DNA of 48,887 nt from Halochromatium roseum (lineage in GTDB: Bacteria > Pseudomonadota > Gammaproteobacteria > Chromatiales > Chromatiaceae). The DNA lies in NCBI RefSeq assembly GCF_016653315.1, contig NZ_NHSH01000088.1, forward strand, positions 1 to 48,887, given 5' to 3'. The position numbers and the translations under genes were made by a program. Of the stretch, positions 4,611 to 45,156 are shown one piece after another. Under the pieces are notes generated by a model, which saw nothing but the letters and a program-made list of their open reading frames with translations, searched no databases and was not told the origin of the DNA. The stretch's first letter is position 1; each line of letters begins with the position of its first letter.

Positions 4611-4638
4611 AAGACCGGTGTGATGGCCGAGTTCTTTC
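4611..4638 (-). promoter_or_regulatory. Putative ECF-sigma promoter of the peroxiredoxin-like gene
   Basis: Read leftwards: GAAAGAA (4638-4632), 15 bases, GGTCTT (4616-4611). Box sequences and spacing match the copies at 23154, 36501 and 45129, apart from the last base of the first box. The start codon is 113 bp downstream. Confidence 0.6.
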
Positions 4639-4814
4639 AACCGAATTGGTCAATCTTTCAACCGGGCTTTCAATTCAGTCAGTCCTCTCGATGCTGAGTC
4701 TGCGCATGCTCCTGCTTTCGGTGCAGCCGCCTCACGGGTGGCGATTTGAGCCCCTGGAGTCAATTCGACGCCGGTCGCTTGAAATGATCCGGCATCGCGG
4801 CAGGTCCAATCCCT

Positions 4815-5570
4815 ATGATGAACGCGCATGCCTGCAACTACCCGCTCCGTGATCTGCGCCTGCTGCCGTCCGCATGGATGCGGATCGGGAGCAGTGTCGT
4901 CAGCATCCCAGTAAGCTATCGCGCGACTTGGCCCGATGGCCTCGGTGCGCGTGGTTGGAAGCTCGATGCCAACCTTGATGACCCCGAGATCATCGCCGCG
5001 ACCAGCGATGCCAGCGGCGCGATCCCCACATCGGTCTTGGTCCATGATGCACTGGATCACCTGCTCTGCGGGTTCGCGCCCAGCGGTCATCGCGCCGAAG
5101 CGATGGCCCTTGAGCAGCTGGCGCGACGCACCGGCTCCGACCCAACGCCCGACTATCGGCAAATGGCCCGCGAGGATCTGCTCACCGGCCAGGTGGTTGG
5201 CGAGCCACTGTACCGATTCATCGGCGCAGAGCTCCGTCATCAGCTCCCGATGACGGCGACCGACTGGGATGATCGCTCGGTGGTGAATGCGCTGCGCGAG
5301 CGACTCGGTGACGAGGCACTGATCGAGCAGCTGGTACAGCGCATGGCCGGGCTCGGGCATGCCGGTCGACCGCACGCCCTGCTGAGTTGGCGCGTCACCG
5401 GCTTTGCGTACTCCCACCGCACCGAGCTTGGACTGCGCCTGCAGCGCCTGCTCGAGCAGATGGACGCCTGGGTCGACGCCGAGGGATTGACCGAAACGTC
5501 CGGCGAGATCCGCATCGGGCAGGGCGGCTGTGCCTTTGCCGCCGAGCAGGGACCGCGCTTGGAGGTTTAA
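4815..5570 (+). CDS. Protein of unknown function, 251 residues
   Basis: I do not recognise this protein. It is soluble-looking, with no signal peptide or membrane segment. Notable stretches are SVLVHDALDHLLCGFAPSG (residues about 73-91, with a His-Asp-x3-Asp-His pattern that could bind metal), RAEAMALEQLARRTG and a C-terminal helical part (LGLRLQRLLEQMDAWVDAEG). The HDxxDH-like run suggests a helical metal-binding fold, but this is a guess. Two ATGs in a row open the frame; a weak GGCAGG precedes them. A long open frame also exists on the opposite strand over the same DNA, but its protein is repetitive and has no recognisable domain. Neighbours give no clue. Confidence 0.55.
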   Translation: MMNAHACNYPLRDLRLLPSAWMRIGSSVVSIPVSYRATWPDGLGARGWKLDANLDDPEIIAATSDASGAIPTSVLVHDALDHLLCGFAPSGHRAEAMALEQLARRTGSDPTPDYRQMAREDLLTGQVVGEPLYRFIGAELRHQLPMTATDWDDRSVVNALRERLGDEALIEQLVQRMAGLGHAGRPHALLSWRVTGFAYSHRTELGLRLQRLLEQMDAWVDAEGLTETSGEIRIGQGGCAFAAEQGPRLEV

Positions 5571-5644
5571 CAAGGCTGTTCGTCGAGACTGCGTTCGGCA
5601 GCCTAGACGCCATTCTGGACCCGGGACGGAGCTCTGTCATCGCA

Positions 5645-6520
5645 TCACCGGCCCCGCGGCTCGAGCCCGAAGCAGTCCAGATCCGAGGCAACGCTCAGCG
5701 CGCCCTGATAGACAGCGCGAATCCGCGCCAGACTGTCATCCAGTGCCCGCTCCGAGCGGCGCATCAGATGGCTCAGCACCAGATGCTTGACCTCGGCCGC
5801 CTTGGCGATCTCGGCAATCTCCGAGGGCAGGGCATGCAGCCGTGCGGCGACCTGTCCTGCCTGCTCCGGCACGGCATGGTCCATGATCAACAGATCGGCA
5901 TCGCGCGCAAAGTCGACGAACCAGGGATCATCGCCATTCAGATCCCCGCTGAAGACGATGCGCTGATCGCCCACGTCGATGCGGTAGGCCAGCGCCGGGA
6001 CCGGGCCATGGCTGACGCCGATGGCACTGACCCGATAGTCATCGGTCTCAAGCACCAGGATCGGCTCGCGGCTGTCGGCCTCCAGCGTGTGGCGCTCCAG
6101 CCTGACCAGCCCATCGCTGCCATCGAGATAACCGGCGAGGTAGCCGAACGCCCCGGTCTTTGCAGCGAACAGCCCCTGCAGATAGCCCTCGAGATCCGGG
6201 TAATCCCCGCCGCCGGTTGGGCCGGCTATCGGCAAGGCCCGATTACGCGGGCTGAAATAGCCGCTTTTCAGCAGCGCCGGCAGGTCGGTCGCATGGTCGG
6301 CGTGCAGATGCGTGAGCGCGATCAGCTCGAGGTCGGCAAAGCGCGCGCCGCTGGCCCCATAGCGCGCGAAACTGCCGCCACCGAGGTCGACCAGCACCCG
6401 CGACTTGCCCTCCAGCCACAGCAGATAGCCCGCGCTGGCGCGCTCCTGCTGGGCCTCCGGACCGCCGGAGCCGAGCACCCGCACCCGCAACCGGTGCCTC
6501 GCAGGTGCTGGCAGCGGCAC
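5645..6520 (-). CDS. MBL-fold metallo-hydrolase (RNase Z/arylsulfatase-like), 5' end probably frameshifted
   Basis: A metallo-beta-lactamase-fold hydrolase. Seen are VRVLGSGGPEAQQERASAGY at the N-terminus, the metal motif HLHADH (71-76), later metal ligands in SHGPVPAL, VFSGDL and MDHAVP, and the C-terminal LVLSHLMRR. This matches the RNase Z/ElaC-like subgroup often annotated as arylsulfatase or beta-lactamase-like; the substrate is not predictable. The open frame begins at a GTG at 6520 with no signal peptide. The overlapping frame just upstream encodes a signal-peptide-like run (RLAKGLLILASLGAGSSAAA, about 6510-6570). Shifting one base joins the two, so the natural protein was probably exported and this copy carries a frameshift or sequencing error. 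A weak copy of the ECF-type promoter motif lies at 6784-6811. Confidence 0.75.
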   Translation of the reverse strand: MPLPAPARHRLRVRVLGSGGPEAQQERASAGYLLWLEGKSRVLVDLGGGSFARYGASGARFADLELIALTHLHADHATDLPALLKSGYFSPRNRALPIAGPTGGGDYPDLEGYLQGLFAAKTGAFGYLAGYLDGSDGLVRLERHTLEADSREPILVLETDDYRVSAIGVSHGPVPALAYRIDVGDQRIVFSGDLNGDDPWFVDFARDADLLIMDHAVPEQAGQVAARLHALPSEIAEIAKAAEVKHLVLSHLMRRSERALDDSLARIRAVYQGALSVASDLDCFGLEPRGR

Positions 6521-6811: not shown

Positions 6812-6931
6812 GCCATCCATCGAGCGCTCATAAAGAGCACTAAAAGGAATACCGCGCCGCGCGGGTCCAAGAGGCAAACGGATCAGATCCACTGATCACA
6901 TCCACCCAACCCGAGGCCCGAAGACCACCCG

Positions 6932-8586: not shown

Positions 8587-9927
8587 TCATCCCAGAAATA
8601 CCTTGCTCGCCGGATAGGCGACCCGAGCCTTGGCCCGCGTGGCGAGGAAGAAGCCGAGCGTCAGCGGGCCGACGCGCCCGATGAACATCACCGCGATGAT
8701 CACCGTCCGTCCCAGCTCGTCCAGCGCGCCCGTGGTGCCACGCGAGAGACCGACCGTGCCGAACGCGGAGGTGACCTCGAAGGCGGCGTCGAGGAAATCG
8801 CCCTCATAGGTCAGCATGATCAGGAAGATAGCGACCAGCACTGTCATCAGGCTCACCATGGCCAGCGCCAGGACCTTCATGACCTCCTCAGCCCCCAGAC
8901 TGCGCCCAAAGACGTGAAGCTGTGAGCGGCGTTTGAAAAAGGCCAGGGTGGCCAGCAGCAGCACGATGAAGCTAGTCACCTTGATGCCGCCCGCCGTCGA
9001 TGTGCTGCCGCCGCCGATCACCATCAGCGACATGAACATCATCGCCGTGCTGTCATAAAGGCCACCGATATCGACCGTGTTGAACCCAGCGGTGCGCGTC
9101 GTCACCCCCTGGAACCAGCTGGCCCAGAGCCGCTCGCCGATGCCATCGAGACCACCCAGCGTTGCCGGATTGGTCCATTCCAGCACGGCGAAGAGCAGCA
9201 CCGACCAGAGGATCAGGCCCAGCGTGCCGACGATCATCAGCTTGGTGTGCAGCGAAAAACGGCGCCAGCTGCGCTTGCCGTAAAGCTCGGTGACGACGAC
9301 GAAGCCGAGGCCGCCGAAGATGAACAGCGCCGGAATCACCAGGTTGATGATCGGATCAGCGACCCAGCGCGACAGGCTATCCGGGAACAGCGCGAAGCCG
9401 GCGTTGTTGAAGGCCGAGACGGTGTGAAACAGTGCCTGCCAGAGCCCGTTGGCCCAACCGAACTCGGGCACGAAGACGATGGCCAGCAGCGCCACGCCGA
9501 GCAGCTCGCAGGCCAACACCACTTGGATGATGCCGCGCACCAGCGCTAGCAGGTCGGTGATCGAGGTCTGGTTGAGGTCGTCGCGCAGGTAGATGCGGTG
9601 GGAGATGCTCAGCGGCAGGCCAAGCATGGTCAGCACCAGCACCGCGAAGGTCATCAGCCCCAGCCCGCCGAGCTGGATCAGCACCATGACCACGGCCTGT
9701 CCGAACAGCGTGAGCTGGCTGCCGGTATCGATCACCACCAGGCCGGTGACGGTGACTGCCGAGGTGGCGGTAAATAACGCGTCGGACCAGGAGATCGGCG
9801 CCGGGGTGGCGATCGGCAGTTTCAATAGCCCGGTTCCGACGGCGATCAGCGTCGCATAGAGCAAGGCGAGGATGGCGGGTGGCGGAATCTGGAGCCTCCC
9901 GCCCTTGCGGAGCCATTTCAGGCGCAT
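8587..9927 (-). CDS. ktrB: Potassium transporter subunit KtrB (TrkH/KtrB family)
   Basis: A 446-residue polytopic membrane protein forming the ion-conducting subunit of a sodium-coupled potassium uptake system. It has four membrane-pore-membrane units with the selectivity-filter motifs in order: TSAVTVTGLV (near residue 60), HTVSAFNNAGFAL, VTTRTAGFNT, and TSAFGTVGLSRG near the C-terminus, plus the flexible gate segment GGGSTSTAGGIKV. Length and motifs fit KtrB rather than the longer TrkH, which is also present at 20361. It follows the RCK subunit KtrA by 44 bp on the same strand, so the two form an operon. The ATG at 9927 gives a short basic leader before the first membrane helix. Confidence 0.9.
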   Translation of the reverse strand: MRLKWLRKGGRLQIPPPAILALLYATLIAVGTGLLKLPIATPAPISWSDALFTATSAVTVTGLVVIDTGSQLTLFGQAVVMVLIQLGGLGLMTFAVLVLTMLGLPLSISHRIYLRDDLNQTSITDLLALVRGIIQVVLACELLGVALLAIVFVPEFGWANGLWQALFHTVSAFNNAGFALFPDSLSRWVADPIINLVIPALFIFGGLGFVVVTELYGKRSWRRFSLHTKLMIVGTLGLILWSVLLFAVLEWTNPATLGGLDGIGERLWASWFQGVTTRTAGFNTVDIGGLYDSTAMMFMSLMVIGGGSTSTAGGIKVTSFIVLLLATLAFFKRRSQLHVFGRSLGAEEVMKVLALAMVSLMTVLVAIFLIMLTYEGDFLDAAFEVTSAFGTVGLSRGTTGALDELGRTVIIAVMFIGRVGPLTLGFFLATRAKARVAYPASKVFLG

Positions 9928-9971
9928 GGGCCGAATCAGAACGCTTGTCAGAGAGCCGGTGGGCGCACCGA

Positions 9972-10637
9972 TCAGAGGCTGTCACCGAGGCGACGCATGT
10001 CCTCGCGGCGCCCCAGCAGCAGCAGTTTGTCGTCAGCTTGCAGCTCCTCCTCCGTGCGCTTGCAGGAAATGAACTCCGTGCCACGCATCAGGCCGAGGAC
10101 GCGCACCTCGAACGCATCGCTCAAGCCCAGCGCATCGATCCGTTTCCCGGCAAGCCCATCGGGCACGCGAAAATCCACCACATGGAAGCCGTTACCAAGG
10201 CTGACATAATCGCGCACCAGTGGGTTGTGCAGCATCTGCGCGATGTGGCGGCCGATCTCCTGCTCGGGCTGGATCACGCGATCGGCGCCCAACTTGCTGA
10301 GGATGCGGTGATGGGTGCGGCTGATCGCCTTGACCCAGACAGTGGGCACACCGAGCATCTTGACGTTCATGGTGCAGAGGATGTTGGCTTCCAGTTCCTC
10401 GCCGATGGCCACCACCGCCACGTCGTAATTACCCACGCCAGCCTCGCGCAGGGCCTGTTCATCACGCCCGTCGGCGATCAACGCCTCGGCCAGCGTCTCG
10501 GCGACGTTGGCCACGTTTCGCTCCAGGATGTCGATCCCCAGCACGTGATTATTGAACCGCGCAAGCTCGGAGGCGACCGTGGTGCCGAAGGTGCCAAGGC
10601 CGATCACCGCGAAGCTGCGCTTTTGTTGTGTTGACAT
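9972..10637 (-). CDS. ktrA: Potassium uptake regulatory subunit KtrA (RCK domains)
   Basis: A 221-residue cytoplasmic protein with one RCK_N Rossmann domain (FAVIGLGTFGTTVASEL, then LGIDILERNVANV, GVGNYDVAVVAIGEELEAN and GADRVIQPEQEIGR) and an RCK_C domain at residues about 140-221. It binds nucleotide and gates KtrB. This single-unit length is typical of KtrA, as against the doubled TrkA at 18915. I use the ATG at 10637, which directly precedes the Rossmann strand; the upstream frame extension is unlike protein. It is the first gene of the ktrAB operon and is divergent from kdp, sharing a 195-bp promoter region. Confidence 0.9.
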   Translation of the reverse strand: MSTQQKRSFAVIGLGTFGTTVASELARFNNHVLGIDILERNVANVAETLAEALIADGRDEQALREAGVGNYDVAVVAIGEELEANILCTMNVKMLGVPTVWVKAISRTHHRILSKLGADRVIQPEQEIGRHIAQMLHNPLVRDYVSLGNGFHVVDFRVPDGLAGKRIDALGLSDAFEVRVLGLMRGTEFISCKRTEEELQADDKLLLLGRREDMRRLGDSL

Positions 10638-10832
10638 CGTGGCTATGCGGGTCGTGATTCCAAGAATGGCGGCGATTCTAGTCCTTGGGCGCCCGCTTGC
10701 AAAAGCGACGACGACGCGCTCCGACAAAATAGTATGCCTTTGTTACGCGCTTCCCCGGTCGGTGCCTAGCGCTGTTACGCCCGCGCTCTCTAACCTTACC
10801 CGCCTTGGTTAACAACGCTGTGTGAGGTCATC
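10638..10832. promoter_or_regulatory. Divergent promoter region between ktrAB and kdp
   Basis: This 195-bp stretch must hold the promoters for both leftward ktrAB and rightward kdpFABC. GTTACGC occurs twice in the same orientation (10742-10748 and 10774-10780), with starts 32 bp apart, about three helical turns, which suggests a regulator site such as one for KdpE. An AACCTTACC/GGTTAAC stretch follows near 10793-10813. I could not assign -35/-10 boxes with confidence. Confidence 0.4.
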
Positions 10833-10913
10833 GTGTACGCCATCCTGCTGTTCGTCGTGCTGGCGTTGCTCGTCTATCTGTCGGTCGCCCTGCTGCGGCC
10901 AGAGAGGTTTTAG
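10833..10913 (+). CDS. kdpF: KdpF, small subunit of the Kdp potassium ATPase
   Basis: A 26-residue hydrophobic peptide starting at GTG and ending LLVYLSVALLRPERF, which carries the invariant KdpF tail (YxxxALLRPExF). It forms a single membrane helix. KdpF stabilises the KdpFABC complex in the inner membrane. It is preceded by TGTGAGGTCATC, a moderate ribosome-binding site, and followed after two bases by another tiny ORF and then kdpA. Confidence 0.85.
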   Translation: MYAILLFVVLALLVYLSVALLRPERF

Positions 10914-10915
10914 CC

Positions 10916-10996
10916 ATGGGCATCATCGGCGCACTGATTCTCCTGGCCCTGTTCGGGCTGTGTTTTCTGTTCGTGGAATGGGAGGACCAGCTATGA
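10916..10996 (+). CDS. Second tiny single-helix ORF between kdpF and kdpA
   Basis: A 26-residue peptide (MGIIGALILLALFGLCFLF, then VEWEDQL) starting 2 bp after the kdpF stop and overlapping the kdpA start (ATGA). It would form one membrane helix with an acidic C-terminus. Tight spacing on both sides and the overlap argue for real translation. It does not carry the KdpF tail. Some kdp operons carry a similar extra small hydrophobic ORF near kdpF, so it may be a further accessory subunit; no function can be stated. Confidence 0.55.
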   Translation: MGIIGALILLALFGLCFLFVEWEDQL

Positions 10997-12702
10997 ATGA
11001 AGTCCTGCTCATCTACGCGGTCGCACTGTTATTGGCCTGGCCGTTGGGACTCTACTTGGCGACGATCTATTCGCCCAGACCGACCGCGCTCGATCGGCTG
11101 TTCGGGCCGGTCGAGTGGGTCCTTTACCGCGCCATCGGCGTTGATCCGCTGGCGCCCATGCACTGGAAAGCCTACGGCAAGGCGCTGCTCAAGCTGCATG
11201 TCGTCCTTGCGCTCCTTGTGCTGGTGATTTTGATGCAGCAGGGGCGGCTGCCGCTGAATCCGGACGGCATCGCGGGCATGAGCTGGGATCTGGCGCTGCA
11301 TACCACGGCGTCCTTCATCACCAATACCAACCAGCAGCACTACTCGGGGCAGGCGCAACTGTCCTATTTCGCCCATCTGGTCGCCATCGTCAGCCTGCAG
11401 GTGATCACGCCGGCCGCAGGCATCGCGGCGCTGGTGGCCATCCTGCGCACGGCCTTTGCGCGGCGCGAAGCGTCTGCATTGACCACCGACGGCGCGGTAT
11501 CGGTTGGCAACTTTCATGCCGATCTGGTCCGCGCCATTGTCCGGCTGATGCTGCCGGTAGCCTTCATCACCGCGCTGCTGCTCGCCTGGCAGGGGGTGCC
11601 CAACACGCTTGAAGGCGCCCAGACCGCCACCCCGCTCGATCCCAGCGCGGAGCTTGCCGAGCAGCGTATCCCGGTCGGCCCGGTGGCGCCCATGGTCGCG
11701 ATCAAGCAGGTGGGCACCAACGGCGGCGGCTGGTATGGGCCGAACAGCTCCGTGCCGCTGGAGAACCCGACGCCGGTGTCCAATGTCGTCGAGACCGTCG
11801 CCATCGTGTTGATCCCGATGGCCTTGGTGTTCATGGCCGGTTATCTGACGGGCCGGCGTCGTCTGACGCTCCTGGTGATGGGCGTGATGCTGTCGATGTC
11901 GGTGGTCCTGACGGGCATCAACATTTGGTCGGAGAACCAACCCAACGCCTCCTTTGCCGGCCTCGCGGCCGAGGGTCCGAATTTGGAGGGCAAGGAGGTG
12001 CGCTTCGGCGCGACGGCCACGGCGCTTTGGGGCAGCTTCACCACCCAGACCTCCAACGGCTCGGTGAACGGCATGCACGACTCCTTCAACCCGCTGGGCG
12101 GCGCCGCGACGCTGATGGATATGTTCATCAACGCCACCTTTGGCGGCGTCGGCGTGGGGCTGATCAACTTCCTGCTGTTCCTGCTGCTCGCGGTCTTTCT
12201 CGGCAGCCTGATGGTAGGTCGCTCACCAGAGGTCTATGGCCGCGCGCTGGAGGCCAAGGAGATCAAGCTGATCTGCATCGCGCTCTTGATCCAGCCGCTG
12301 CTGATCCTCGGACTGACCGCCACGGCGGTGGCGATTCCGGGCCTGGCTCAGAACTCCAATCCGGGCTTCCATGGCCTGAGCCAGGTGCTCTACGAATACA
12401 CCTCCGCCTTCGCTAACAACGGTTCCGGCTTCGAGGGGTTGGGCGACGATACGCCCTGGTGGAACATCAGTTGCGCCCTGGCGCTGATCCTCGGGCGGTT
12501 TATTCCCATCCTGGCACCGCTGGCGTTGGCCGCCCACCTGGCGGGCAAGCGCGTCGCGCCCACCACCTCGGGCAGCCTGGCCGTGGAGACGCCCACCTTC
12601 GCCGTGCTGACCCTGGGGGTGATCCTGATGTTCGCGCTGCTCAGCTTCTTCCCGGTCCTGGCCCTCGGCCCGTTCGCCGAGTTCCTGTCGTTGGCGAGCT
12701 GA
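10993..12702 (+). CDS. kdpA: Potassium-transporting ATPase, potassium-binding subunit KdpA
   Basis: A 569-residue polytopic inner-membrane protein, the channel-like subunit of KdpFABC, homologous in fold to KtrB and TrkH. Landmarks are the N-terminal YLATIYSPRPTALDR, the filter regions TTASFITNTNQQHYSGQ, KQVGTNGGGWYGPNSSVPLE, TTQTSNGSVNGMHDSFNP and TSAFANNGSGFEGL, and GRFIPILAPLALA near the C-terminus. Length is normal. The ATG at 10993 overlaps the stop of the preceding tiny ORF; a GGAGGACC ribosome-binding site lies inside that ORF. kdpB follows after 15 bp. Confidence 0.95.
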   Translation: MNEVLLIYAVALLLAWPLGLYLATIYSPRPTALDRLFGPVEWVLYRAIGVDPLAPMHWKAYGKALLKLHVVLALLVLVILMQQGRLPLNPDGIAGMSWDLALHTTASFITNTNQQHYSGQAQLSYFAHLVAIVSLQVITPAAGIAALVAILRTAFARREASALTTDGAVSVGNFHADLVRAIVRLMLPVAFITALLLAWQGVPNTLEGAQTATPLDPSAELAEQRIPVGPVAPMVAIKQVGTNGGGWYGPNSSVPLENPTPVSNVVETVAIVLIPMALVFMAGYLTGRRRLTLLVMGVMLSMSVVLTGINIWSENQPNASFAGLAAEGPNLEGKEVRFGATATALWGSFTTQTSNGSVNGMHDSFNPLGGAATLMDMFINATFGGVGVGLINFLLFLLLAVFLGSLMVGRSPEVYGRALEAKEIKLICIALLIQPLLILGLTATAVAIPGLAQNSNPGFHGLSQVLYEYTSAFANNGSGFEGLGDDTPWWNISCALALILGRFIPILAPLALAAHLAGKRVAPTTSGSLAVETPTFAVLTLGVILMFALLSFFPVLALGPFAEFLSLAS

Positions 12703-12717
12703 TGCATTGGAGAAAAC

Positions 12718-14775
12718 ATGATGAAACATCAACGCAATGCATCCAAGTTGCTCACCGCCGAGACCCTGGCCCGCTTGGCGGGCGAGTCGCTGCGGCGGCT
12801 CGACCCGCGCTGGCTGGCGCGCAACCCCGTGATGTTCGTGGTCGGGGTCGGCACCCTGGTGACCCTGTGGCTGACGGGCGACGCGCTGCTGGCCGGTCGT
12901 CCCTGGGGCTTCGATCTGGCGATCAGCCTCGTGCTGCTGTTCACCCTGCTGTTTGCCAACGCGGCCGAGGCGCTGGCGGAGGCGCGGGGCCGGGCACAAG
13001 CCGAGAGCCTGCGCTCCACTCGAGAGCAGCTCGTGGCCCGGCGTGTGCGGGGGAAGGGGTTCGGGAATGGCTCTGGCCAGGGCGACGATGAGGAGCAGGT
13101 GCCGGCCACGGCCCTGCGTCGCGGCGACTGGGTGCGGGTGCTGGCGGGAGAGCTGATTCCCGCCGACGGTGAGATCGTCGAAGGGGCCGCCAGCATCAAC
13201 GAGTCGGCGGTCACCGGCGAATCGGCGCCGGTGCTGCGCGAGGCCGGTACCGACAACAGCGGCGTCAGCGCCGGCACCAAGCTGCTGACCGACAGCATCC
13301 TGGTCGAAGTGACGGTGGAGTCGGGCCAGTCACTGCTCGATCGCATGATCGCGCTGGTGGAGAGCGCCAAGCGGCAGAAGACGCCCAACGAGATCGCGCT
13401 CACGGTGCTGCTGGCCGCGCTCACCATGGTGTTCCTGATCGTGGTGGCGACCCTGGTGCCTTTTGCCCTGTTCGTCGGTGGCGAGGTCTCGGTGCCGGTC
13501 TTGGTCGCGCTGCTGGTCTGCCTGATCCCCACCACCATCGGCGGGCTGCTGCCGGCCATCGGCATCGCCGGCATGGATCGGGCCATGCGCGCCAACCTGG
13601 TCGCCAAGTCGGGCAAGGCGGTGGAGGTGGCCGGCAACATCGACACCCTGCTGCTGGACAAGACCGGCACCATCACCCACGGCGACCGCCAGGCCAGCGA
13701 CTTCCTGCCGCTGACCAAGGTCGCGCCGGAGCGGCTGCGGGATGCGGCCATGCTCGCCTCGCTGGCCGACCCCACGCCGGAGGGCAAATCCATCGTCGCG
13801 CTGGCGCGAGATCGCGGCGCGACGGTCGCGGCCGACCCCGAGGCGCGCGTCCTGGCGTTTTCCGCCAAGACCCGCCTCTCCGGCATCGACCAGCCCGACG
13901 GCCGGCGTATCCGCAAGGGTGCGCCGGATGCCATCCGCCGCTTCGTCACCGAGAACGGTGGCGCCTATCCCGACGAGACCACCGCGCTGGTGGAGCGCGT
14001 GGCGCGAGGCGGCGCGACGCCGTTGGTGGTCGCGGAGGACGACCGGGTGCTCGGCGTCGTGCCCCTGTCCGACATCATCAAGACCGGCATCAAGGAACGC
14101 TTCCAGCGCCTGCACGCCATGGGCATCCGCACGGTGCTGATCACCGGCGACAATCCGCTGACCGCCGCCGCCATCGCCGCCGAGGCTGGCGTGGCGGACT
14201 ACATCGCCGAGGCCACGCCGGAAGACAAGCTGGAGTACATCCGGTGCGAACAGGCCCAGGGACGCCTAGTCGCCATGATGGGCGACGGCACCAACGACGC
14301 GCCGGCCCTGGCCCAAGCGGATCTCGGGCTGGCGATGAACTCCGGCACCCAGGCCGCCAAGGAGGCGGGCAACATGGTGGATCTCGATTCCGATCCGACC
14401 AAGCTGCTGGAGGTGGTGGAGATCGGCAAGCAGTTGCTTGTCACCCGTGGCGCGCTAACCACCTTCTCGCTGGCCAACGACGTGGCCAAGTACTTTGCCA
14501 TCCTACCGGCCATCTTCATCGCCAGCGTGCCGGCCATGCAGGCCCTCGACATCATGCAGCTCAACAGCCCGGCCACGGCGGTGCTGGCGGCGGTGATCTT
14601 CAATGCCCTGGTGATCCCGGCGCTGATCCCGTTTGCGCTGCGTGGGGTGCGCCTCCGCCCGCTCAGTGCCGACGCGCTGTTGCGCCGCAACCTGTTGATC
14701 TATGGGCTTGGCGGGCTGTTGCTGCCGTTCCCGGCGATCAAGCTCATCGATCTTGGTCTTGGTTTGGTGATGTAG
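12718..14775 (+). CDS. kdpB: Potassium-transporting P-type ATPase subunit KdpB
   Basis: The 685-residue catalytic subunit that couples ATP hydrolysis to potassium transport. The phosphorylated aspartate is D314 in [13 protein letters not shown]-type actuator sequence ([11 protein letters not shown]), the nucleotide-binding domain, [19 protein letters not shown] and the membrane helix [14 protein letters not shown] are all intact. The N-terminal region has a Gly/Glu-rich insert near residues 118-128 ([11 protein letters not shown]), slightly longer than usual. The start ATG ATG at 12718 follows GGAGAAAAC. kdpC follows directly. Confidence 0.96.
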
Positions 14776-14784
14776 GAGATGGTG

Positions 14785-18077: not shown

Positions 18078-18149
18078 GCTGAGAGGCGTGAGTATAAAGC
18101 GCACTGTTCTCAGGTCTCATCCTGCATTTCTGGTGATGACAAAGCACGC

Positions 18150-18860: not shown

Positions 18861-18914
18861 CGCTGGCCGGTGCAGCAGAACGAGGCCTGGGCTATCAGGA
18901 ATGCATAAAGCGCT

Positions 18915-20291: not shown

Positions 20292-20360
20292 CGGCGTGCC
20301 TAGAGCCCGATGCACGAACCGCGTTGACGTTGATTCACGACCCTAGGAGACGATCCCCGC

Positions 20361-22848: not shown

Positions 22849-23106
22849 TCAGCAACCGTTCACGCAGTAGACCGACTCCTGCGGGTCGGCATCGCCACGG
22901 TCATCGGACTCGCCTTCGCGATGCGCGTCGTCGTCATCACCGTCTGAATAATCCAGCAGCAATGCCGCCTTGAGGCTCGCCTCGAAGGCTAGCGCCCGCT
23001 TGAGCGCGCGCGCACAAGGCGCGCACTGCGCCGCATGGGCTTGGAGATCGGCTTGTCGTCCTTGCGGATCGACCAACAGTTGGCGGCGAAAGGAGAGACA
23101 GTTCAT
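22849..23106 (-). CDS. Short zinc-finger anti-sigma factor (DUF3379-like)
   Basis: An 85-residue protein beginning MNCLSFRRQLLVDPQGR, the hallmark of DUF3379/ZAS-type anti-sigma factors. Cys3 plus H24-x3-C28-x2-C31 (HAAQCAPC) form the zinc site. Members usually continue to about 200 residues with a membrane helix; this one has no membrane segment and ends in an acidic linker (YSDGDDDDAHREGESDD) and a Cys-containing tail (SVYCVNGC), so it would be soluble. The start at 23106 opens the motif. It is divergent from the ECF sigma gene at 23371, an unusual arrangement since anti-sigma genes normally follow their sigma gene. The promoter motif at 23154-23181 suggests it belongs to the sigma factor's own regulon, giving negative feedback. 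Confidence 0.75.
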   Translation of the reverse strand: MNCLSFRRQLLVDPQGRQADLQAHAAQCAPCARALKRALAFEASLKAALLLDYSDGDDDDAHREGESDDRGDADPQESVYCVNGC

Positions 23107-23153: not shown

Positions 23154-23181
23154 AAGACCCGCCGTGCGCAGCAGATCTTTC
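23154..23181 (-). promoter_or_regulatory. Putative ECF-sigma promoter of the anti-sigma operon
   Basis: Read leftwards: GAAAGAT (23181-23175), 15 bases, GGTCTT (23159-23154), 48 bp before the anti-sigma start codon. Boxes and spacing are identical to the copies before bufA (36501) and doxX (45129). Confidence 0.65.
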
Positions 23182-23370: not shown

Positions 23371-23901
23371 ATGTCTGCTTCTGCCGCGCTGACCTCCGCC
23401 CCATCGACCACCGCCAGCGAGGCGCCAAGCTTCGAGGCCCTCGCCGAGACCCATCGGCACAGCCTCTTCAAGTACGCCTACCGGCTCTCCGGTAACAAAG
23501 AGATCGCTGAAGACCTGGTCCAGGACAGTCTGCTGCGGGCCTGGCGCTCGTTCGCACGGCTGCAGAACCCAGCGGCTGCCTTGGGCTGGATGAAGACCAT
23601 CGTACGCCGCGAGAATGCGCGCCGCTTCGAGCGCATCCAACCGCGCGAGAGCGCGATGCCGACCGAGGAGCTGCCGACGCAGCCTGCGCAGGACTATGAC
23701 ACCTCCACCGACGCCTTTGTCTTGCGCCGGGCGCTGCGGGCGCTGCCGGCGGAGTATCGCGAGCCGTTGATCCTGCAGGTGCTACACGGCTATTCGCAGC
23801 AAGAGATCGCCGCGCGGCTTGGCCTCAGCTGCGCAGGGGCTGGCACGCGGCTGTTCCGGGCTCGGCAGAAGCTGCGCGCTGCGCTGGGCGAGCGTTCATG
23901 A
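23371..23901 (+). CDS. ECF-type RNA polymerase sigma factor
   Basis: A 176-residue sigma-70 of the extracytoplasmic-function type. Region 2 is FEALAETHRHSLFKYAYRL through EIAEDLVQDSLLRAWRSF and GWMKTIVRRENARRFER. Region 4 is ALRALPAEYREPLILQVLHG with helix-turn-helix QQEIAARLGLSCAGAGTRL. The ATG at 23371 follows GGGAGTCCTTCC; the longer frame upstream runs through the promoter and is rejected. It is probably expressed from the sigma-54-type promoter at 23314. Its stop overlaps the start of a receiver protein (ATGA). Divergent from a DUF3379 anti-sigma gene, it is the best candidate to read the GAAAGAT-N15-GGTCTT promoters in this window; it has no such motif upstream of itself. Confidence 0.88.
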   Translation: MSASAALTSAPSTTASEAPSFEALAETHRHSLFKYAYRLSGNKEIAEDLVQDSLLRAWRSFARLQNPAAALGWMKTIVRRENARRFERIQPRESAMPTEELPTQPAQDYDTSTDAFVLRRALRALPAEYREPLILQVLHGYSQQEIAARLGLSCAGAGTRLFRARQKLRAALGERS

Positions 23902-32986: not shown

Positions 32987-34366
32987 TCAATCACGCTCGG
33001 CAACAGGGGTTGGCGAGCGTTCCGTCACGCCTTGGGCACCCTGATCCTGGGACACCTCATCGCCGCTGTCCTCGACCGTGCGCGTAAACCGCAGATGGGC
33101 GATATCAGGAGGGAAGAACATCGCCCAGTTCCACTCCAGATAGAGCCGCGCCTTGCGCGCCAGGGTCGGGATATAGAGCAGGTAGAAGCCGCGCCAGAGC
33201 AGCCAGGGGATGAACCCGGACAGATTGATGCCATAGACCCGAGCCACGGCGCGGTTATGACCGATGGCCGACATCAGGCCCTTGCGCTTGTAGCCGAACG
33301 CGCGGGTCGGCTCGCCGCGCTCGCGCCGGGCGATGTTGGCCGCGAGCTGCGGTCCCTGGCGCAACGCGAACTGGGCCGTCGGTGGGCAGGACGCGCCGTC
33401 CTCGCGGCTGTTCGGCACCGCCGCACAATCGCCGATCGCCCAGACGCCCGGCAGACCAGGCACCGACATATCGGCCTCGACACGCAAGCGACCGCGCTGC
33501 TTCTCAGCAGGCAGAGCATCGATGAGCCGGTTCGCCGTGGTGCCGATGGTGCTGACGATGGTGCCGGCATCGATACGGCTGCCTCTGTTGAGCGTCACGC
33601 CCTGCGCATCAATAGCCTCACTACGGGTCCCGAGCCGCACCTCGACCCCGCCATGCCGGGACAGCTTGCGCTCGGTAAAGCGGCCCAGTCGCTCCGGCAG
33701 CTCCGGCAACAAGTGTGGACCCCCATGGACGATCACCACGCGCGCGGGCTCGAGCTGCGACTGCCGATACCAACGTTGGCTCTCGGTGAGAAAGTCGCTG
33801 ATCTCGCCGGCGACCTCGACCCCGGAGAAGCCGCCACCGATGACCACGAAGGTCTTCAGCCAGCGGCGCAAGGTCGGGTTCTCGGTCAGCTCGGCGTCCT
33901 CGAGCCGGGCGATGACCCGATTGCGCAGATAGAGCGCATCGCCGACGGTCTTCAGCGGCAGCGTGTGCTCGGCCATGCCGGGGATCATGTGCAGATTGGC
34001 CCGGCTGCCGCAGGCCAGCACCAGATGATCGTAGTCGAGGCGGCCAGTTTCGGAGCTGTTGCGGAAATGGACGCAGCGGGCCTCTGTATCGATGCCGGTA
34101 ACTTCGACCTGGTGGACCTTGGCGTGACGCACCATCTGGCGCAAGGGCGCGACCACATGACCGGGCAGCACCGAGGCCCCGACCACCTCCGGCAGCAGTG
34201 GGTTATAGGTCAGATGGTTCTCCGCCGAGAGCAGATGGATCTCGGCCGAGCGCAGGTGCCGCTCAAGGGCCTTGGCCGCGGTCGCACCGGCGAAGCCGCC
34301 ACCAATGATAACGATCCGGGGGCGACGGTCGGGGTCCGTAATGGGCGTGCTGGAGGCATCGGGCAT
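32987..34366 (-). CDS. ndh: Type II NADH dehydrogenase (NDH-2)
   Basis: A 459-residue FAD-dependent pyridine nucleotide oxidoreductase. It has the FAD-binding GGGFAGATAAKAL near residue 22, the NAD(P)H-binding VVIGGGFSGVEVAGEI near 174, VWAIGDCAAVPN, and a C-terminal hydrophobic/amphipathic stretch (INLSGFIPWLLWRGFYLLYI) for membrane attachment. This matches NDH-2, which passes electrons from NADH to quinone without pumping. It starts 21 bp after the bufC stop on the same strand and is probably the last gene of the bufferin operon, an association that hints at a redox role there. The C-terminus is acidic and unstructured. Confidence 0.85.
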   Translation of the reverse strand: MPDASSTPITDPDRRPRIVIIGGGFAGATAAKALERHLRSAEIHLLSAENHLTYNPLLPEVVGASVLPGHVVAPLRQMVRHAKVHQVEVTGIDTEARCVHFRNSSETGRLDYDHLVLACGSRANLHMIPGMAEHTLPLKTVGDALYLRNRVIARLEDAELTENPTLRRWLKTFVVIGGGFSGVEVAGEISDFLTESQRWYRQSQLEPARVVIVHGGPHLLPELPERLGRFTERKLSRHGGVEVRLGTRSEAIDAQGVTLNRGSRIDAGTIVSTIGTTANRLIDALPAEKQRGRLRVEADMSVPGLPGVWAIGDCAAVPNSREDGASCPPTAQFALRQGPQLAANIARRERGEPTRAFGYKRKGLMSAIGHNRAVARVYGINLSGFIPWLLWRGFYLLYIPTLARKARLYLEWNWAMFFPPDIAHLRFTRTVEDSGDEVSQDQGAQGVTERSPTPVAERD

Positions 34367-34387: not shown

Positions 34388-35221
34388 TTACTGTCGGCGC
34401 GTGCCCAGTAGAATCTGGCGCTCACGCAGATCGTCCAGCAGGCTGCGCCCGGCCTCGATCAGCTGCGCCGGCCTTGGATGCTGAAGCTCGAGCGCGATGC
34501 TGTTGAGCAGATCCCGTCCGCTCCGGTGGCTCTGTTCTCGCAGCAGCACCAGCAGTCGCTGGGTCACCACGTTGATCTTCAGAAACGCGATGCGCTCCTG
34601 TCGCGTGCGGTACACGACCAGATGCGTCGGCTCAGGGTCCGGCGCGTGCGGCTGGAAGTCCGCGCTGATGCGATGCACCGGGAAGCGGTAGCTGAGGTTC
34701 CAGGCCAGCGGTGAGACCACCGGGACGCCGTCGAGCAGATCACCGTTCGGATCGGCGAGCGCGGGTCCGGCCTCGGCCTCGCTGAAGATCAAGGCGGTCT
34801 CGACCCACTCGTAGTGGGCAAGCTCCAGCACAAAGGGCGGGTCTTCAGGGCGCAAGGCCCCCGCTGTGCTCAGATAGGCCAACAGCTCCTGGCCCAGCTC
34901 CGGGAACAGGGGCGTCTCGGCGCGATGGGCGATCAAGAATCCGCGGATCAGCGCTCGCCAGCGCTCGCGACCCAGACACTGGTAGAGGACCGGAAAGCCC
35001 TGCTCGAGCAGCGACGCGACATTGTTGAAGATCAGCTCCCGATAGATCCGCAGACGGCGATCCTCGATGCCCGCTGGCGGCGGTTGCTGCGGGTCGCGCA
35101 GATGAGCGGTGAAGGCCTGCTGAATCTGCATGAATCCGGGCGCTGCCTGAACGTTGGCCTGAACGTTGGCCTGAGCGTCGGCCTGAGCGTCGGCCTGTGA
35201 GTGGGAATGGGTCTCAGGCAT
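34388..35221 (-). CDS. bufC: BufC, bufferin biosynthesis accessory protein (DUF2063)
   Basis: A 277-residue protein with the DUF2063 putative DNA-binding-like N-terminal domain ([20 protein letters not shown], then [20 protein letters not shown] and [13 protein letters not shown]). DUF2063 proteins serve as partner proteins of MNIO enzymes, delivering the precursor peptide. A Gln/Ala/Asp repeat ([17 protein letters not shown], residues about 9-25) encoded by 12-bp tandem repeats precedes the domain. It overlaps bufB by 8 bp. The ATG at 35221 is chosen because a longer frame runs into bufB. Confidence 0.85.
35145..35197. repeat. 12-bp tandem repeat inside bufC
   Basis: Four full copies and a part of GCCTGA(A/G)CGT(T/C)G in a row, the first two identical and the next two identical. 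It encodes the (QAxA)-type low-complexity N-terminus of BufC and is probably variable in copy number. It is too short and gap-free for a CRISPR. Confidence 0.75.
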
Positions 35222-36092
35222 GAGCAAGGTGTCCGTTGGCAGTGACCCGCGGGGCTCCGAGCTGGTCGGTGTATTGCCGCTGAATGTCGCTGATCCGCTG
35301 CACCTCGGCCGTGAGCTCAGCGAGCGGCGGGATGTTGAAATCCCGCTCGAGCAGGGTCGGGAAGACGCCAAAGCGCGCATAGGCCTGCTCCAACAGCGCC
35401 CACACCGGCTCGATCACATCGGCCCCATGGGTATCGATGCGCAGGTCCGGCGCCTCTTCGTAATGCCCAGCGATATGGCCGTAAACGATGCGCTCGGCGG
35501 GCAGGGCATCAAGGAAGGCGATCGGGTCGTAGCGATGATTGATGCTGTTGACGAGGATGTTGTTCACATCCAGCAGCAGGTCACAGTCGGCTTCGTCGAG
35601 CACCGCGTTGATGAAATCGATCTCGCGCATCTCTTGGCCTGGTGCGGCGTAATAGGAGACGTTCTCCAGGGCGATGCGTCGCTCGAGGATCTCTTGCACC
35701 TGACGGATGCGCCGGGCGACATGCTGTACCGCCTCGGCGGTGAACGGGATCGGCATCAGGTCATACAGCTGTCCATCATCCGAGCAGTAGCTCAGATGCT
35801 CGGTGTAGACCGCGATCTGGTGTGCATCGAGAAAGGTCTTGATGCGGTTGACGAACGGCACATCGAGCGGCGCGGGTGAGCCGATCGAGAGGGACAAGCC
35901 GTGGCAGACGAAGGGATGGCGCTCGGTCAGGCCGCGCAGCAACCGCCCCCAGCGGCCACCAACAGCGATCCAATTCTCCGGCGCGATCTCCCAGAAGGAG
36001 ACCTCCAGCGGAGGCTGTTCGGCTGCGGCGGCGATGAACGCGCGCCGCAGACCGAGACCGGCGCCATGAACGGGGTCGGGAGTCATGTTCAT
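35214..36092 (-). CDS. bufB: BufB, multinuclear iron oxidative enzyme (MNIO, DUF692)
   Basis: A 292-residue DUF692 TIM-barrel enzyme. MNIOs use two or three iron atoms to modify cysteines of RiPP precursors; in bufferins they make copper-binding heterocycles. Conserved pieces seen are [10 protein letters not shown] at the start, [68 protein letters not shown] and DTHG, together supplying the His/Asp/Glu metal ligands. It lies between bufA (42-bp gap) and bufC (8-bp overlap). The start ATG at 36092 is weakly supported; an ATG two codons in is possible. Confidence 0.92.
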
Positions 36093-36134: not shown

Positions 36135-36389
36135 TCAGCCCTTATTGCCGCACTTACCCTCGCCGCACTTGCCTTCGCCTTCGCCCTTGCCGTCATCCTT
36201 ATTGCCGCACTTGCCCTCGCTGTCGCCTTTAGCCCCGCAGCTGCCCTCGGCCAGCTGCAGATAGCCGCTGTCGAGTTGCTCGGTGACGAAGGGGTTGTCG
36301 CTGGCCTGGGCCAGATTGGCGACGCTCAGGGTGCCGACGAGGGTGGCACCGGCGATCATGGCGGCTGAGGTGATGATCTGCTTGGACAT
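36135..36389 (-). CDS. bufA1: BufA1, bufferin precursor peptide
   Basis: An 84-residue RiPP precursor. It has a signal peptide (MSKQIITSAAMIAGATLVGT, cleavage near QAS-DN at about residue 30) and a Gly/Lys-rich core with four cysteines in EGSCGAKG, EGKCGNK, EGKCGEGKCGNKG. The EGKCG pattern and four-Cys core are typical of the bufferin 1 family, whose cysteines are oxidised by BufB to bind copper in the periplasm. The start at 36389 follows CGGAGTGTTTCC; the same leader sequence precedes doxX. A putative ECF-sigma promoter lies 112 bp upstream. It is the first gene of bufA-bufB-bufC-ndh. Confidence 0.9.
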   Translation of the reverse strand: MSKQIITSAAMIAGATLVGTLSVANLAQASDNPFVTEQLDSGYLQLAEGSCGAKGDSEGKCGNKDDGKGEGEGKCGEGKCGNKG

Positions 36390-36500: not shown

Positions 36501-36528
36501 AAGACCGCAGTGGTCGGTGAAATCTTTC
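36501..36528 (-). promoter_or_regulatory. Putative ECF-sigma promoter of the bufferin operon
   Basis: Read leftwards: GAAAGAT (36528-36522), 15 bases, GGTCTT (36506-36501). It matches the anti-sigma and doxX copies exactly in both boxes and in spacing. The remainder of the 400-bp region to the divergent kinase at 36791 shows no gene. Confidence 0.65.
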
Positions 36529-39007: not shown

Positions 39008-40420
<1,413 letters not shown>

Positions 40421-43343: not shown

Positions 43344-43421
43344 CCGCCTCCACCACTGATCCGTCGCTCGTTGCTGGGCCTAGGCGCGCCGATCTCAGGC
43401 ATTCGCACCGTTCACCGATGC

Positions 43422-44387
43422 TCAGTTCGCCCGATAGACCTCAGTCTCGGGGTGAAAGGCATACCAAGCAAACCAGAACAGGGTCGTAGCCGGGAGTGGG
43501 TCGCCCTCAGCATCAAAGGCGCGCGCACTGGGCTGTGCCCAATCGAAGCGCACCTCAATGGACTCACCGCCAAGCTGATCAGACACGCGGCCATCGGTCT
43601 GCGAGAGCTCCGCGAACGGATAGGCCTTGAACTGTCCATTCACCTCAACCCCAAGCACGCGCTCCTTCGGGTGATAACGCTTGGAGCGCGCGCTCACAGG
43701 AAAGTAAAGCTCGTCATGGCTGCTATAGCCGCCATAGGGGGCACGATCATAGTTGTGGCGATGGCCGGTCTCGGTGGACAGCACCTGGGTCTGCGGATGG
43801 GTGCGACGCCAGGCGCCCCAGGTCGTGTGGGTCAAGGGCAGGGCGGTGAGCTTGGTCCCGGCCAAGGGGCCGGCGATGGCCTGTTTGGCGATCTGACTCC
43901 AGAGGCTCTCGGTCTGACGGTCGTAGAGTAGCAGATCGCTGTTGTAGAGCAGTCCGGAGACGCCGAAGCTGAGCTCGCGGCCCGCCTGCTCGGCGCGGAA
44001 CGCGATGCCTGAGCCGCACAGCGGGCAATAGGTGATCGCAATCGGCTCGCCCTCGATGCGGTCATTGACGATCTCATGCCAATCCATGATCTTGATCGGA
44101 TAGGCGCGGGCCTCGCCTTGATGGACCAGGCCCAGGACCTCGTCGTCACGCGTAAGAAAATCCACCGCCTCGGCCTCGACAAAGCGCGGCTGATCGATCG
44201 CCGGGATGCCATCCCGATCCGGCCCACCGGCATGGATCTCAGCGACCGGGACCAGGCTGTTGTGCACGTCAAAGCCGTTGAGTTGTTGTGCCGTCGGTGC
44301 CGCATCCAGCAGCACACTGGCACTGAGTGCGACGAGACCGACGACGGCAAAGACGGCTGGGAGTGCTGAACTGAGGCGTTGAGTCAT
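43422..44387 (-). CDS. DUF3179 domain-containing exported protein
   Basis: A 321-residue protein with an N-terminal signal/anchor (SALPAVFAVVGLVALSASVL). The DUF3179 landmarks are present: IPAIDQPRFVEAEAVDFL, GEARAYPIKIMDWHEIVND, TYCPLCGSGIAF with two cysteines (CPLC), SGLLYNSDLLLYDRQTESLW and HTTWGAWRRTHP. Function of DUF3179 is not established; the CPLC pair suggests metal or redox chemistry. It is 48 bp downstream of doxX on the same strand and should share its promoter at 45129. Confidence 0.85.
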   Translation of the reverse strand: MTQRLSSALPAVFAVVGLVALSASVLLDAAPTAQQLNGFDVHNSLVPVAEIHAGGPDRDGIPAIDQPRFVEAEAVDFLTRDDEVLGLVHQGEARAYPIKIMDWHEIVNDRIEGEPIAITYCPLCGSGIAFRAEQAGRELSFGVSGLLYNSDLLLYDRQTESLWSQIAKQAIAGPLAGTKLTALPLTHTTWGAWRRTHPQTQVLSTETGHRHNYDRAPYGGYSSHDELYFPVSARSKRYHPKERVLGVEVNGQFKAYPFAELSQTDGRVSDQLGGESIEVRFDWAQPSARAFDAEGDPLPATTLFWFAWYAFHPETEVYRAN

Positions 44388-44435
44388 GCGATGGCTCCTT
44401 GGCTGGCCGGGGTCGGATGGCGGGTTCGGATGAGA

Positions 44436-45086
44436 TCAGGCGTGAGCGGTTGCGAACCTGGCCTCCGTCTTGCGGGACCGTGCGCTGCGACGCTCCAGCC
44501 AACGCCCGATCCAATCATCGACCGACAGGTAGCGCCCGGCGCCGATGAACAACAGCGCCACCAGCATGATCAGGTAGGTCGCGGCAAACTCGATGCCATT
44601 GTTCAGGATCACCAGGCTGCCGTTCTCGGTCAGCCACTCATAATTGCCATGCTCGCGCAGGATGTCCTTCGCCCGATCCAGCCGCTCAACCGCGCCGATG
44701 GTGCGCTCGTTGGCGAACAACGAGCCACTGCCCTCGGCGATCGCCAGCCAGCCGTGCTGCCAGTGCACCGTCACCATGGCCACGAGCATGGTCACGATCA
44801 ACGGCACCGAGATCAGCCGCACGCCAAGGCCAAACACCAATAAGACCGCGCCAACGGTCTCGGTTGAAGCCGCCAGGAACGCCATCACTGTTGGAAAGGG
44901 CAGACCTAAACCCCAGTCCGGATTACCAAACCAGGCCACCGTGCTGTCGAAGCTGGCAAACTTCTTGGTCCCCGCCATCCAGAAGATCGGCGCCAGATAG
45001 AGCCGCAACAGAAGCGGGGCGATGAAATCGACGCGCCTTGTGGCATCGAGTAGGCTGCGCGCCTGAGTCATGAGACGAATGAACAT
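44436..45086 (-). CDS. DoxX family inner-membrane protein
   Basis: A 216-residue DoxX protein with four membrane helices: LLLRLYLAPIFWMAGTKKFA near residue 25, PTVMAFLAASTETVGAVLLV, LISVPLIVTMLVAMVTVHW and FAATYLIMLVALLFIGAG. DoxX proteins often accompany bufferin and other MNIO operons and are linked to thiol or quinone redox functions. The ATG at 45086 follows CGGAGTGTTCCCC, almost the same leader as bufA (CGGAGTGTTTCC). A GTG three codons upstream is in frame but lacks spacing. It has the ECF-type promoter 34-43 bp upstream and is divergent from the kinase at 45172. Confidence 0.88.
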   Translation of the reverse strand: MFIRLMTQARSLLDATRRVDFIAPLLLRLYLAPIFWMAGTKKFASFDSTVAWFGNPDWGLGLPFPTVMAFLAASTETVGAVLLVFGLGVRLISVPLIVTMLVAMVTVHWQHGWLAIAEGSGSLFANERTIGAVERLDRAKDILREHGNYEWLTENGSLVILNNGIEFAATYLIMLVALLFIGAGRYLSVDDWIGRWLERRSARSRKTEARFATAHA

Positions 45087-45128
45087 GGGGAACACTCCGA
45101 TTGGGTTGCTGAGTCGCTGATAGCGAAC

Positions 45129-45156
45129 AAGACCCGATCAGCGCGGTTGATCTTTC
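45129..45156 (-). promoter_or_regulatory. Putative ECF-sigma promoter of doxX-DUF3179
   Basis: Read leftwards: GAAAGAT (45156-45150), 15 bases, GGTCTT (45134-45129). Box sequences and spacing are identical to the bufA and anti-sigma copies. GCTATCAGC follows downstream here (45116-45124) and also occurs between bufA and its promoter. Confidence 0.65.

What the first reader, a model, noticed from the sequence alone, without database searches (positions are those of the whole stretch)
4611..45156. A shared two-box promoter, GAAAGA(T/A)-N15-GGTCTT, before four leftward units, marks a putative ECF regulon around a bufferin operon
Exact copies of GAAAGAT-N15-GGTCTT lie upstream of the DUF3379 anti-sigma operon (23154-23181), bufA (36501-36528) and doxX (45129-45156). 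A copy with one changed base lies before the exported peroxiredoxin-like gene (4611-4638). All keep exactly 15 bases between boxes and point toward their gene. The same window encodes one ECF sigma factor (23371), adjacent to the anti-sigma gene. The simplest reading is that this sigma factor controls bufferin synthesis, DoxX/DUF3179, an exported peroxiredoxin and its own anti-sigma. The unit membership, not only the motif, seems undescribed.
Basis: partly seen in the sequence, partly recalled or inferred. Interest (0 to 1): 0.85.

Follow-up and report, generated by a model that had tools for sequence, protein, structure and literature searches.

The report
Shared stress promoter for copper-peptide genes
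In a purple sulfur bacterium, four separate gene groups near one stress-response sigma factor carry the same start signal, so a copper-binding peptide, its membrane partner, a peroxide-type enzyme and the sigma factor's own inhibitor are probably switched on together.

Summary
GAAAGAW-N15-GGTCTT occurs four times in the 5.17-Mb assembly, all in this window (about 0.07 expected). A codon-usage gene caller puts each outside genes, 34-114 bp before a same-strand start. Sites recur before orthologous genes in related Chromatiaceae; in H. glycolicum, where hvfX and DUF3179 are apart, each has its own. Variants cluster beside homologues of the sigma gene: 14 hits in 28 kb against 6 in 730 kb. A site lies within 1 kb upstream of hvfB in 12 of 63 places in genomes with this sigma factor, 0 of 37 without. 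Best reading: an ECF promoter of the sigma factor at 23371. The 'bufferin' operon is HvfABC (EGKCG/oxazolin type), with hvfX 8 kb away under a twin promoter; a second hvfABC operon has a near-match. ECF control of such operons is known in Neisseria, Haemophilus and Caulobacter. What seems new is the wider membership (DUF3179, redoxins, a new exported Cys protein) and a soluble anti-sigma cut down from the membrane DUF3379 form. There are no expression data.

The parts
23371..23901 (+). ECF sigma factor gene (176 aa), proposed reader of the motif
   Evidence: Pfam Sigma70_r2 and r4_2 above cut-off; 79 related loci; motif clusters beside its homologues
22849..23106 (-). small soluble ZAS-like anti-sigma (85 aa; C3, H24-x3-C28-x2-C31, ends CVNGC), cut-down DUF3379
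   Evidence: DUF3379 residues 1-54, 29.1 bits, below the 33.2 cut-off; no strongly hydrophobic segment, while 8 of 8 distant relatives tested are full-length DUF3379 with one
23154..23181 (-). promoter site of the anti-sigma operon (-35 at 23175-23181, -10 at 23154-23159)
   Evidence: conserved in L005, L007, L008 and as a one-base variant in L006
22339..22806 (-). exported Cys protein of unknown family, second gene of the anti-sigma operon
   Evidence: no Pfam/NCBIfam family above cut-off; C44, C51, D57 invariant in the 14 sequences aligned
36501..36528 (-). promoter site of hvfABC(-ndh) (-35 at 36522-36528, -10 at 36501-36506)
   Evidence: directly before hvfA in G066, G078, G079 and, by distance to hvfB, in G077
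36135..36389 (-). hvfA-like precursor peptide (84 aa, signal-peptide-like start, 3 EGKCG, 4 Cys)
   Evidence: sequence and count; NF050137 19.2 bits against cut-off 19.5
35214..36092 (-). hvfB, MNIO maturase
   Evidence: NF003818 HvfB 444 bits, cut-off 360; Pfam MbnB_TglH_ChrH 349 bits
34388..35221 (-). hvfC, MNIO partner (DUF2063/NGO1945_C); internal ATG start proposed at 35221
   Evidence: NF050145 HvfC 298 bits, cut-off 142; PDB 3dee; start position
32987..34366 (-). NDH-2-like NADH dehydrogenase, 22 bp after hvfC, probably same operon
   Evidence: Pfam Pyr_redox_2; same order in H. salexigens L148
45129..45156 (-). promoter site of hvfX-DUF3179 (-35 at 45150-45156, -10 at 45129-45134)
   Evidence: 34-45 bp before hvfX in 7 of 25 hvfX places
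44436..45095 (-). hvfX (DoxX family)
   Evidence: NF050144 HvfX 241 bits, cut-off 80
43422..44387 (-). DUF3179 protein, downstream of hvfX
   Evidence: Pfam DUF3179 331 bits; has its own site in H. glycolicum L158
4611..4638 (-). promoter site of the peroxiredoxin-like gene (-35 at 4632-4638, -10 at 4611-4616)
   Evidence: H. salexigens carries a site before g22339b-tlpA-prx
3739..4497 (-). AhpC/TSA-family redoxin, signal-peptide-like start
   Evidence: Pfam AhpC-TSA 112.6 bits; start at 4497 by the gene caller

Best explanation
GAAAGAW-N15-GGTCTT is the -35/-10 promoter pair of the ECF sigma factor at 23371. A small zinc-finger (ZAS-like) anti-sigma encoded divergently (22849-23106) holds the sigma factor inactive. 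Copper or thiol stress oxidises or displaces the zinc site and frees it. RNA polymerase with this sigma factor then starts four leftward units: hvfABC(-ndh), which makes an exported EGKCG peptide whose cysteines are probably turned into copper-binding groups; hvfX-DUF3179; an exported peroxiredoxin-like protein; and the anti-sigma operon, which gives negative feedback. A second hvfABC operon on contig 54 has a near-match (GAAACA-N16-GGTCTC) and is probably included. Shown by sequence: the sites, their position, recurrence and rarity, and the gene families. Inferred: sigma dependence, start sites, anti-sigma action, the signal and the peptide chemistry.
For: Own genome: 4 of 4 exact sites in this window, control 0; all four intergenic, 34-114 bp before starts. 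H. salexigens (G066): 7 matches to GAAAGA-N16-GGTCTT, control 0. Six lie before hvfABC (C95), an hvfA unit with only the start of hvfB (C81), hvfX-DUF3179, anti-sigma-g22339, and two units beginning with a g22339 paralogue and a TlpA-like gene, one of which also holds prx; the seventh (C5, contig end) lies beside the PAS kinase that adjoins hvfX elsewhere and faces away from it. H. glycolicum: separate sites before hvfX (GGTCTC form) and DUF3179 (L158). Thiocapsa: sites before hvfA and, as GGTCCT and further off, before doxX. hvfB: 12 of 63 places with a same-strand site within 1 kb, 0 opposite, about 0.025 expected; hvfX: 7 of 25. Without the sigma factor 0 of 37. At sigma homologues 14 hits in 28 kb against 6 in 730 kb (13 of 55 loci). 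Full-length DUF3379 follows the sigma gene in 8 of 8 distant loci tested. Published analogue: Neisseria SigE -35 GTMAGBWTT, 12-13 bp, -10 CGTCTAAH (PMC2893595, passages): boxes 21-22 bp apart start to start against 22 here (my arithmetic).
Against: No expression or binding data. The sigma gene has no relaxed site on its own strand in the window, L005, L006 or L007, so positive autoregulation is not supported here. 51 of 63 hvfB places in sigma-bearing genomes lack the relaxed site within 1 kb, and 42 of 55 sigma loci lack the stricter pattern nearby. In G015, of the same genus, the two sites do not precede homologues of window genes at tblastn E 1e-3; one precedes another DoxX protein (31.1 bits, cut-off 23.6), the other a 109-aa frame with no Pfam match. 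Other genera of the family also have scattered matches, mostly 0-3 per genome and 6 in G032. The genome may hold other ECF factors: 19 first-look candidates, 1 passed E 1e-20. The relaxed pattern has appreciable background genome-wide.
Confidence: 0.86

Rival explanations
1. The boxes are an operator for a dimeric repressor or activator: AAGA-N18-TCTT is an inverted repeat.
For: Sites of the exact GAAAGA-GGTCTT form contain AAGA/TCTT; 23 of 41 collected sites keep this symmetry.
Against: 18 of 41 break it: position 5 is T or C in 13 of 41 while position 26 stays C in 41 of 41 (sites were chosen by pattern, so partly circular). A spacer one base shorter occurs before the sigma gene in L036 and L041. 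The asymmetric pattern points at the gene: hvfB 12 same strand, 0 opposite.
Confidence: 0.06
2. The sites are promoters of another ECF sigma factor or another form of RNA polymerase in the same genome.
For: Other ECF candidates may exist in the genome (19 first-look candidates).
Against: Site variants cluster beside homologues of this sigma gene, and sites before hvfB were seen only in genomes that carry it (12 of 63 against 0 of 37).
Confidence: 0.07
3. The four sites are a chance or repeat-element match, not functional.
Against: 0.07 expected per genome against 4; the four spacers differ, so they are not copies of one repeat; they recur before the same genes in other species.
Confidence: 0.01

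Closest known systems
Neisseria meningitidis SigE/MseR (NMB2140-2145; PMC2893595 and PMC3240639, passages seen)
   Same: ECF factor plus small ZAS anti-sigma; controls an operon with a DoxX-family gene and three 'hypothetical' genes, which I take to be the MNIO/EGKCG set from passages of PMC7907618 and PMC12668002; small regulon; -35 GTMAG.. and -10 CGTCTAA at nearly the same spacing
   Different: one polycistronic operon that includes the sigma gene, plus msrAB; here four separate units, anti-sigma divergent from sigma, -10 is GGTCTT, and DUF3179, a redoxin and a new exported protein are members
Haemophilus influenzae RpoE2/HrsE (PMC7907618, passages seen)
   Same: small 67-aa anti-sigma; RpoE2-dependent induction of the doxX cluster with UPF0276 (MNIO) and DUF2063 genes by hypochlorite
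   Different: msrAB, dmt and mtsZ as other targets; no promoter motif in the passages I saw; gene order differs
Caulobacter crescentus SigF/NrsF (PMC3511200, passages seen)
   Same: ECF factor controls two MNIO operons, start sites mapped, GTAACC-N16-CGAA promoters
   Different: DUF2282 bufferins, six-TM DUF1109 anti-sigma, different -10, YedY as another target
Cupriavidus metallidurans RpoQ/RsqA and gigPABT (PMC10304878, passages seen)
   Same: ECF and anti-sigma genes beside an operon with DUF2063 and DoxX-like genes, induced by copper and gold
   Different: RpoQ dependence not shown there; anti-sigma predicted membrane-bound

Membership tests
HvfABCX (EGKCG/oxazolin) MNIO system | HvfB-type MNIO | tested here: met
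   NF003818 444 bits, cut-off 360
HvfABCX (EGKCG/oxazolin) MNIO system | HvfC partner and HvfX DoxX protein | tested here: met
   NF050145 298 bits, cut-off 142; NF050144 241 bits, cut-off 80; hvfX is 8 kb away, not in the hvfABC operon
HvfABCX (EGKCG/oxazolin) MNIO system | secreted precursor with EGKCG repeats | tested here: inconclusive
   3 EGKCG by count; NF050137 19.2 bits, just below cut-off 19.5; secretion not tested
Bufferin 1 (DUF2282) system | DUF2282 precursor and BufB-type MNIO | tested here: not met
   no Pfam family on the precursor; MNIO_BufB 268 bits, cut-off 310
ECF sigma factor | sigma-70 regions 2 and 4 only | tested here: met
   Pfam r2 49.7 bits and r4_2 58.2 bits, 176 aa
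ZAS anti-sigma factor | C/H-X23-26-H-X3-C-X2-C (motif as given in PMC7907618) | tested here: inconclusive
   H24-X3-C28-X2-C31 present, preceded by C3 with X20, shorter than stated (sequence); zinc binding not tested
DUF3379 anti-sigma | Pfam DUF3379 above gathering score, full length | tested here: not met
   29.1 bits against 33.2, residues 1-54 of a 232-position model; 8 of 8 distant relatives tested do meet it, 109-177 bits
Neisseria SigE-type (ECF13) regulon | sigma factor in the same ECF group | not tested
   no named Neisseria or Haemophilus sigma sequence was fetched; group number taken from PMC7907618
ECF-dependent promoter | sigma-dependent start site after the -10 box | not testable with these tools
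   needs transcript mapping

The most novel reading that the evidence does not exclude
In this branch of Chromatiaceae a membrane-anchored DUF3379 anti-sigma has been cut down to a soluble zinc-finger domain with a new acidic tail ending CVNGC, and only the anti-sigma, not the sigma gene, is under the sigma promoter. This makes a negative-feedback-only, cytoplasmic thiol/copper switch. One promoter word reunites a scattered copper-peptide pathway (hvfABC twice, hvfX) with DUF3179, periplasmic redoxins and a new exported Cys protein, which makes these unknown proteins candidates for steps of copper-peptide handling.
Probability: 0.42. Interest if true: 0.65.

Novelty: new variant of a known kind. 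Interest (0 to 1): 0.5.

Why it matters
MNIO-made copper peptides are a growing family whose partners and signals are poorly known. A rare promoter word that recurs before each unit gives a sequence-only way to list the pathway's unknown partners (DUF3179, the g22339 family, TlpA/peroxiredoxin), and to recognise a split cluster that gene-neighbourhood searches could miss. It also links a short soluble anti-sigma to the longer membrane DUF3379 form, a testable change in where stress is sensed.

Tried and rejected
AlphaFold2 of the exported protein 22339-22806 with a 4-sequence alignment gave pLDDT 43, so no fold search was made. Solved-structure search for the same protein: best E 0.25. Looser own-genome pattern GAAANA-N16-GGTCTY: 10 sites. 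Of these 4 are the window sites, 1 is before the second hvfABC (C54), 1 is 54 bp before a TusA-like gene (C48), 3 lie inside predicted genes and 1 (C77) is unclear. I did not count the TusA site as a member. The bufferin-1 reading was rejected on family cut-offs. The inverted-repeat operator reading was rejected on loss of symmetry in 18 of 41 sites. In one search one row (L043) had its last two bases typed from assumption; one search shows the last base is C, not T. I dropped that row and use only one search counts for box positions. The box-versus-spacer conservation is partly circular, because sites were picked by pattern, and is not used as an argument. The match list was cut by the tool and was used only to look at listed rows. 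The 0.025 expectation rests on a typed estimate of 176 Mb for the 45 genomes. Literature: 'DUF3379' gave 0 papers. The rows listed by the searches named no promoter for an hvf operon in Chromatiaceae, but only 3 to 20 papers per search were listed, only the open PMC subset is held, and I saw passages, not whole texts (one full section; an abstract). PMC12538549 and PMC12153292 were looked up by search terms and are not close parallels (no term found; passages).
Full report
Observation. The motif GAAAGAW-N15-GGTCTT is present at the four stated places on the - strand. In the whole assembly it occurs exactly four times, all in this window, with none for the backwards control. At the window's base composition 0.072 are expected per genome. 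A gene caller trained on codon usage of window genes places each site outside genes and 114, 48, 112 and 34 bp before the next start on the same strand. At up to two mismatches there are 95 matches against 39 in the control, so the looser motif is mostly not informative.

Anatomy. The sigma gene (23371-23901, +) has sigma regions 2 and 4 only. Divergent from it is a short protein (85 aa) whose first 54 residues match DUF3379 below the curated cut-off; it carries C3 and H24-C28-C31, a ZAS-like pattern, and ends CVNGC. Next is a 155-aa protein of no known family with a signal-peptide-like start. The peptide operon is of the Hvf kind: HvfB 444 bits against cut-off 360, HvfC 298 against 142, and a precursor with three EGKCG, 19.2 bits against 19.5. 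HvfX (241 against 80) is 8 kb away in its own unit with DUF3179. An NDH-2-like gene follows hvfC by 22 bp and keeps that place in H. salexigens. A possible role as a copper reductase is my recall about E. coli Ndh and was not tested.

Recurrence. H. salexigens (G066) has seven matches to GAAAGA-N16-GGTCTT (two with G at position 7) and no control match. They lie before hvfABC-ndh (C95), an hvfA unit with only the start of hvfB (C81), hvfX-DUF3179 (C81), the anti-sigma operon (C94), and two units that begin with a paralogue of the exported protein followed by a TlpA-like gene (C13, C15); the C13 unit also holds the orthologue of the window's peroxiredoxin. The seventh (C5) is near a contig end and faces away from the PAS kinase that neighbours hvfX in the window. 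In the window's genome the exported family has one hit only, so the paralogue found between site and peroxiredoxin in H. salexigens is absent. In H. glycolicum, hvfX and DUF3179 are apart and each has a site (L158). The second hvfABC operon on own contig C54 (precursor with six EGKCG) has GAAACA-N16-GGTCTC, and its counterparts in G066 and G078 have GAAATA and GAAACA forms. Thiohalocapsa relatives show GGTCTC forms before exported-protein units (L152, L153, L155).

Link to the sigma factor. I took 55 loci with a sigma homologue (L005-L058 and L075 of the 79; the other 24, L059-L074 and L076-L083, mostly from distant phyla, were left out). The pattern GNAANA-N15..17-GGTCTT gives 14 hits in the 28 kb next to the sigma starts and 6 in the other 730 kb; a looser first box gives 19 and 17, and its reversed control 1 and 9. 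The near hits are in 13 of 55 loci, 18 of 55 for the looser form; three of the 13 are close relatives of the window. Eight of the 14 near hits are on the sigma strand, six of them centred 41-59 bp before the homology start. In 8 of 8 distant loci tested the gene after sigma is full-length DUF3379 (109-177 bits, cut-off 33.2) with a hydrophobic stretch near residue 80 (19-residue Kyte-Doolittle mean 1.64-2.44), against 0.86 at most in the window's protein. In the window, L005, L006 and L007 no relaxed site precedes the sigma gene on its strand, so feedback there would be through the anti-sigma only.

Enrichment. In 45 sigma-bearing genomes, 41 of which have hvfB matches, 12 of 63 hvfB places (in 10 genomes) have a site within 1 kb upstream on the same strand and none on the other strand, against about 0.025 expected. 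For hvfX it is 7 of 25 and for the exported protein 6 of 17, both searched in 26 of those genomes. In 28 family genomes without a sigma match at E 1e-20 but with hvfB, 0 of 37 places have one (Fisher p 0.003 by place, 0.004 by genome, relatedness not corrected; the sigma-bearing set was drawn by similarity to this sigma and so lies closer to the window).

Limits. 51 of 63 hvfB places in sigma-bearing genomes do not have the relaxed GGTCTT site within 1 kb; two of these (own C54, G066 C54) have GGTCTC forms, and others may be read by other factors. The two sites of G015 do not precede homologues of the window genes, though one precedes a DoxX protein of another kind. Other ECF candidates may exist in the genome.

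Comparison. The nearest published system by anatomy is Neisseria SigE/MseR and its Haemophilus counterpart RpoE2/HrsE: a small anti-sigma and control of a DoxX/MNIO/DUF2063 cluster. The Neisseria promoter (GTMAGBWTT, 12-13 bp, CGTCTAAH) puts its boxes 21-22 bp apart start to start against 22 bp here. Caulobacter SigF (GTAACC-N16-CGAA) controls DUF2282 bufferins with a membrane anti-sigma. PMC12452194 reports sigma and NrsF genes in Buf1 clusters but not in Buf2 (section 14). So ECF control of this kind of operon is known; the variant seen here is its wider, scattered membership and the cut-down anti-sigma.

Verdict. The finding is real and its interpretation is supported, as a new variant of a known kind. 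Sigma dependence and the inducing signal remain to be shown at the bench.

Noticed in passing
L172 (own contig C48:152216-152243): GAAATA-N16-GGTCTT lies 54 bp before a TusA-like sulfur carrier gene; similar sites with some changed spacer bases occur in G066, G077, G078 and G079. Could be a further member or an unrelated promoter.
   Followed up: partly
L146 217-713, L160 5362-5837, L157 8771-9118: In some relatives the hvfA unit next to the site keeps hvfA but only the first residues of hvfB, or no hvfB match right after it; the peptide may then be modified by the second HvfB of the genome.
   Followed up: no
L008 8410 and 10001; L156 17810-17965 and 19401: In H. glycolicum a partial second match to the sigma gene (from residue 53) lies between the anti-sigma and the full sigma gene, as if the sigma gene was partly duplicated or interrupted.
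   Followed up: no
window 31713-31797: ARAGORN calls a tRNA-Ile(GAT) on the + strand inside a long - strand open frame (30567-32762) with a weak DUF1156 match; gene call or tRNA call may be wrong.
   Followed up: no
window 8587-21806: kdpA, a P-type ATPase gene, two TrkH genes and a TrkA gene: a potassium-uptake cluster next to this regulon, fitting a halophile.
   Followed up: no
window 182-1540: TraN-like (F-type conjugation) protein at the window edge, so part of the contig may be a former mobile element.
   Followed up: no
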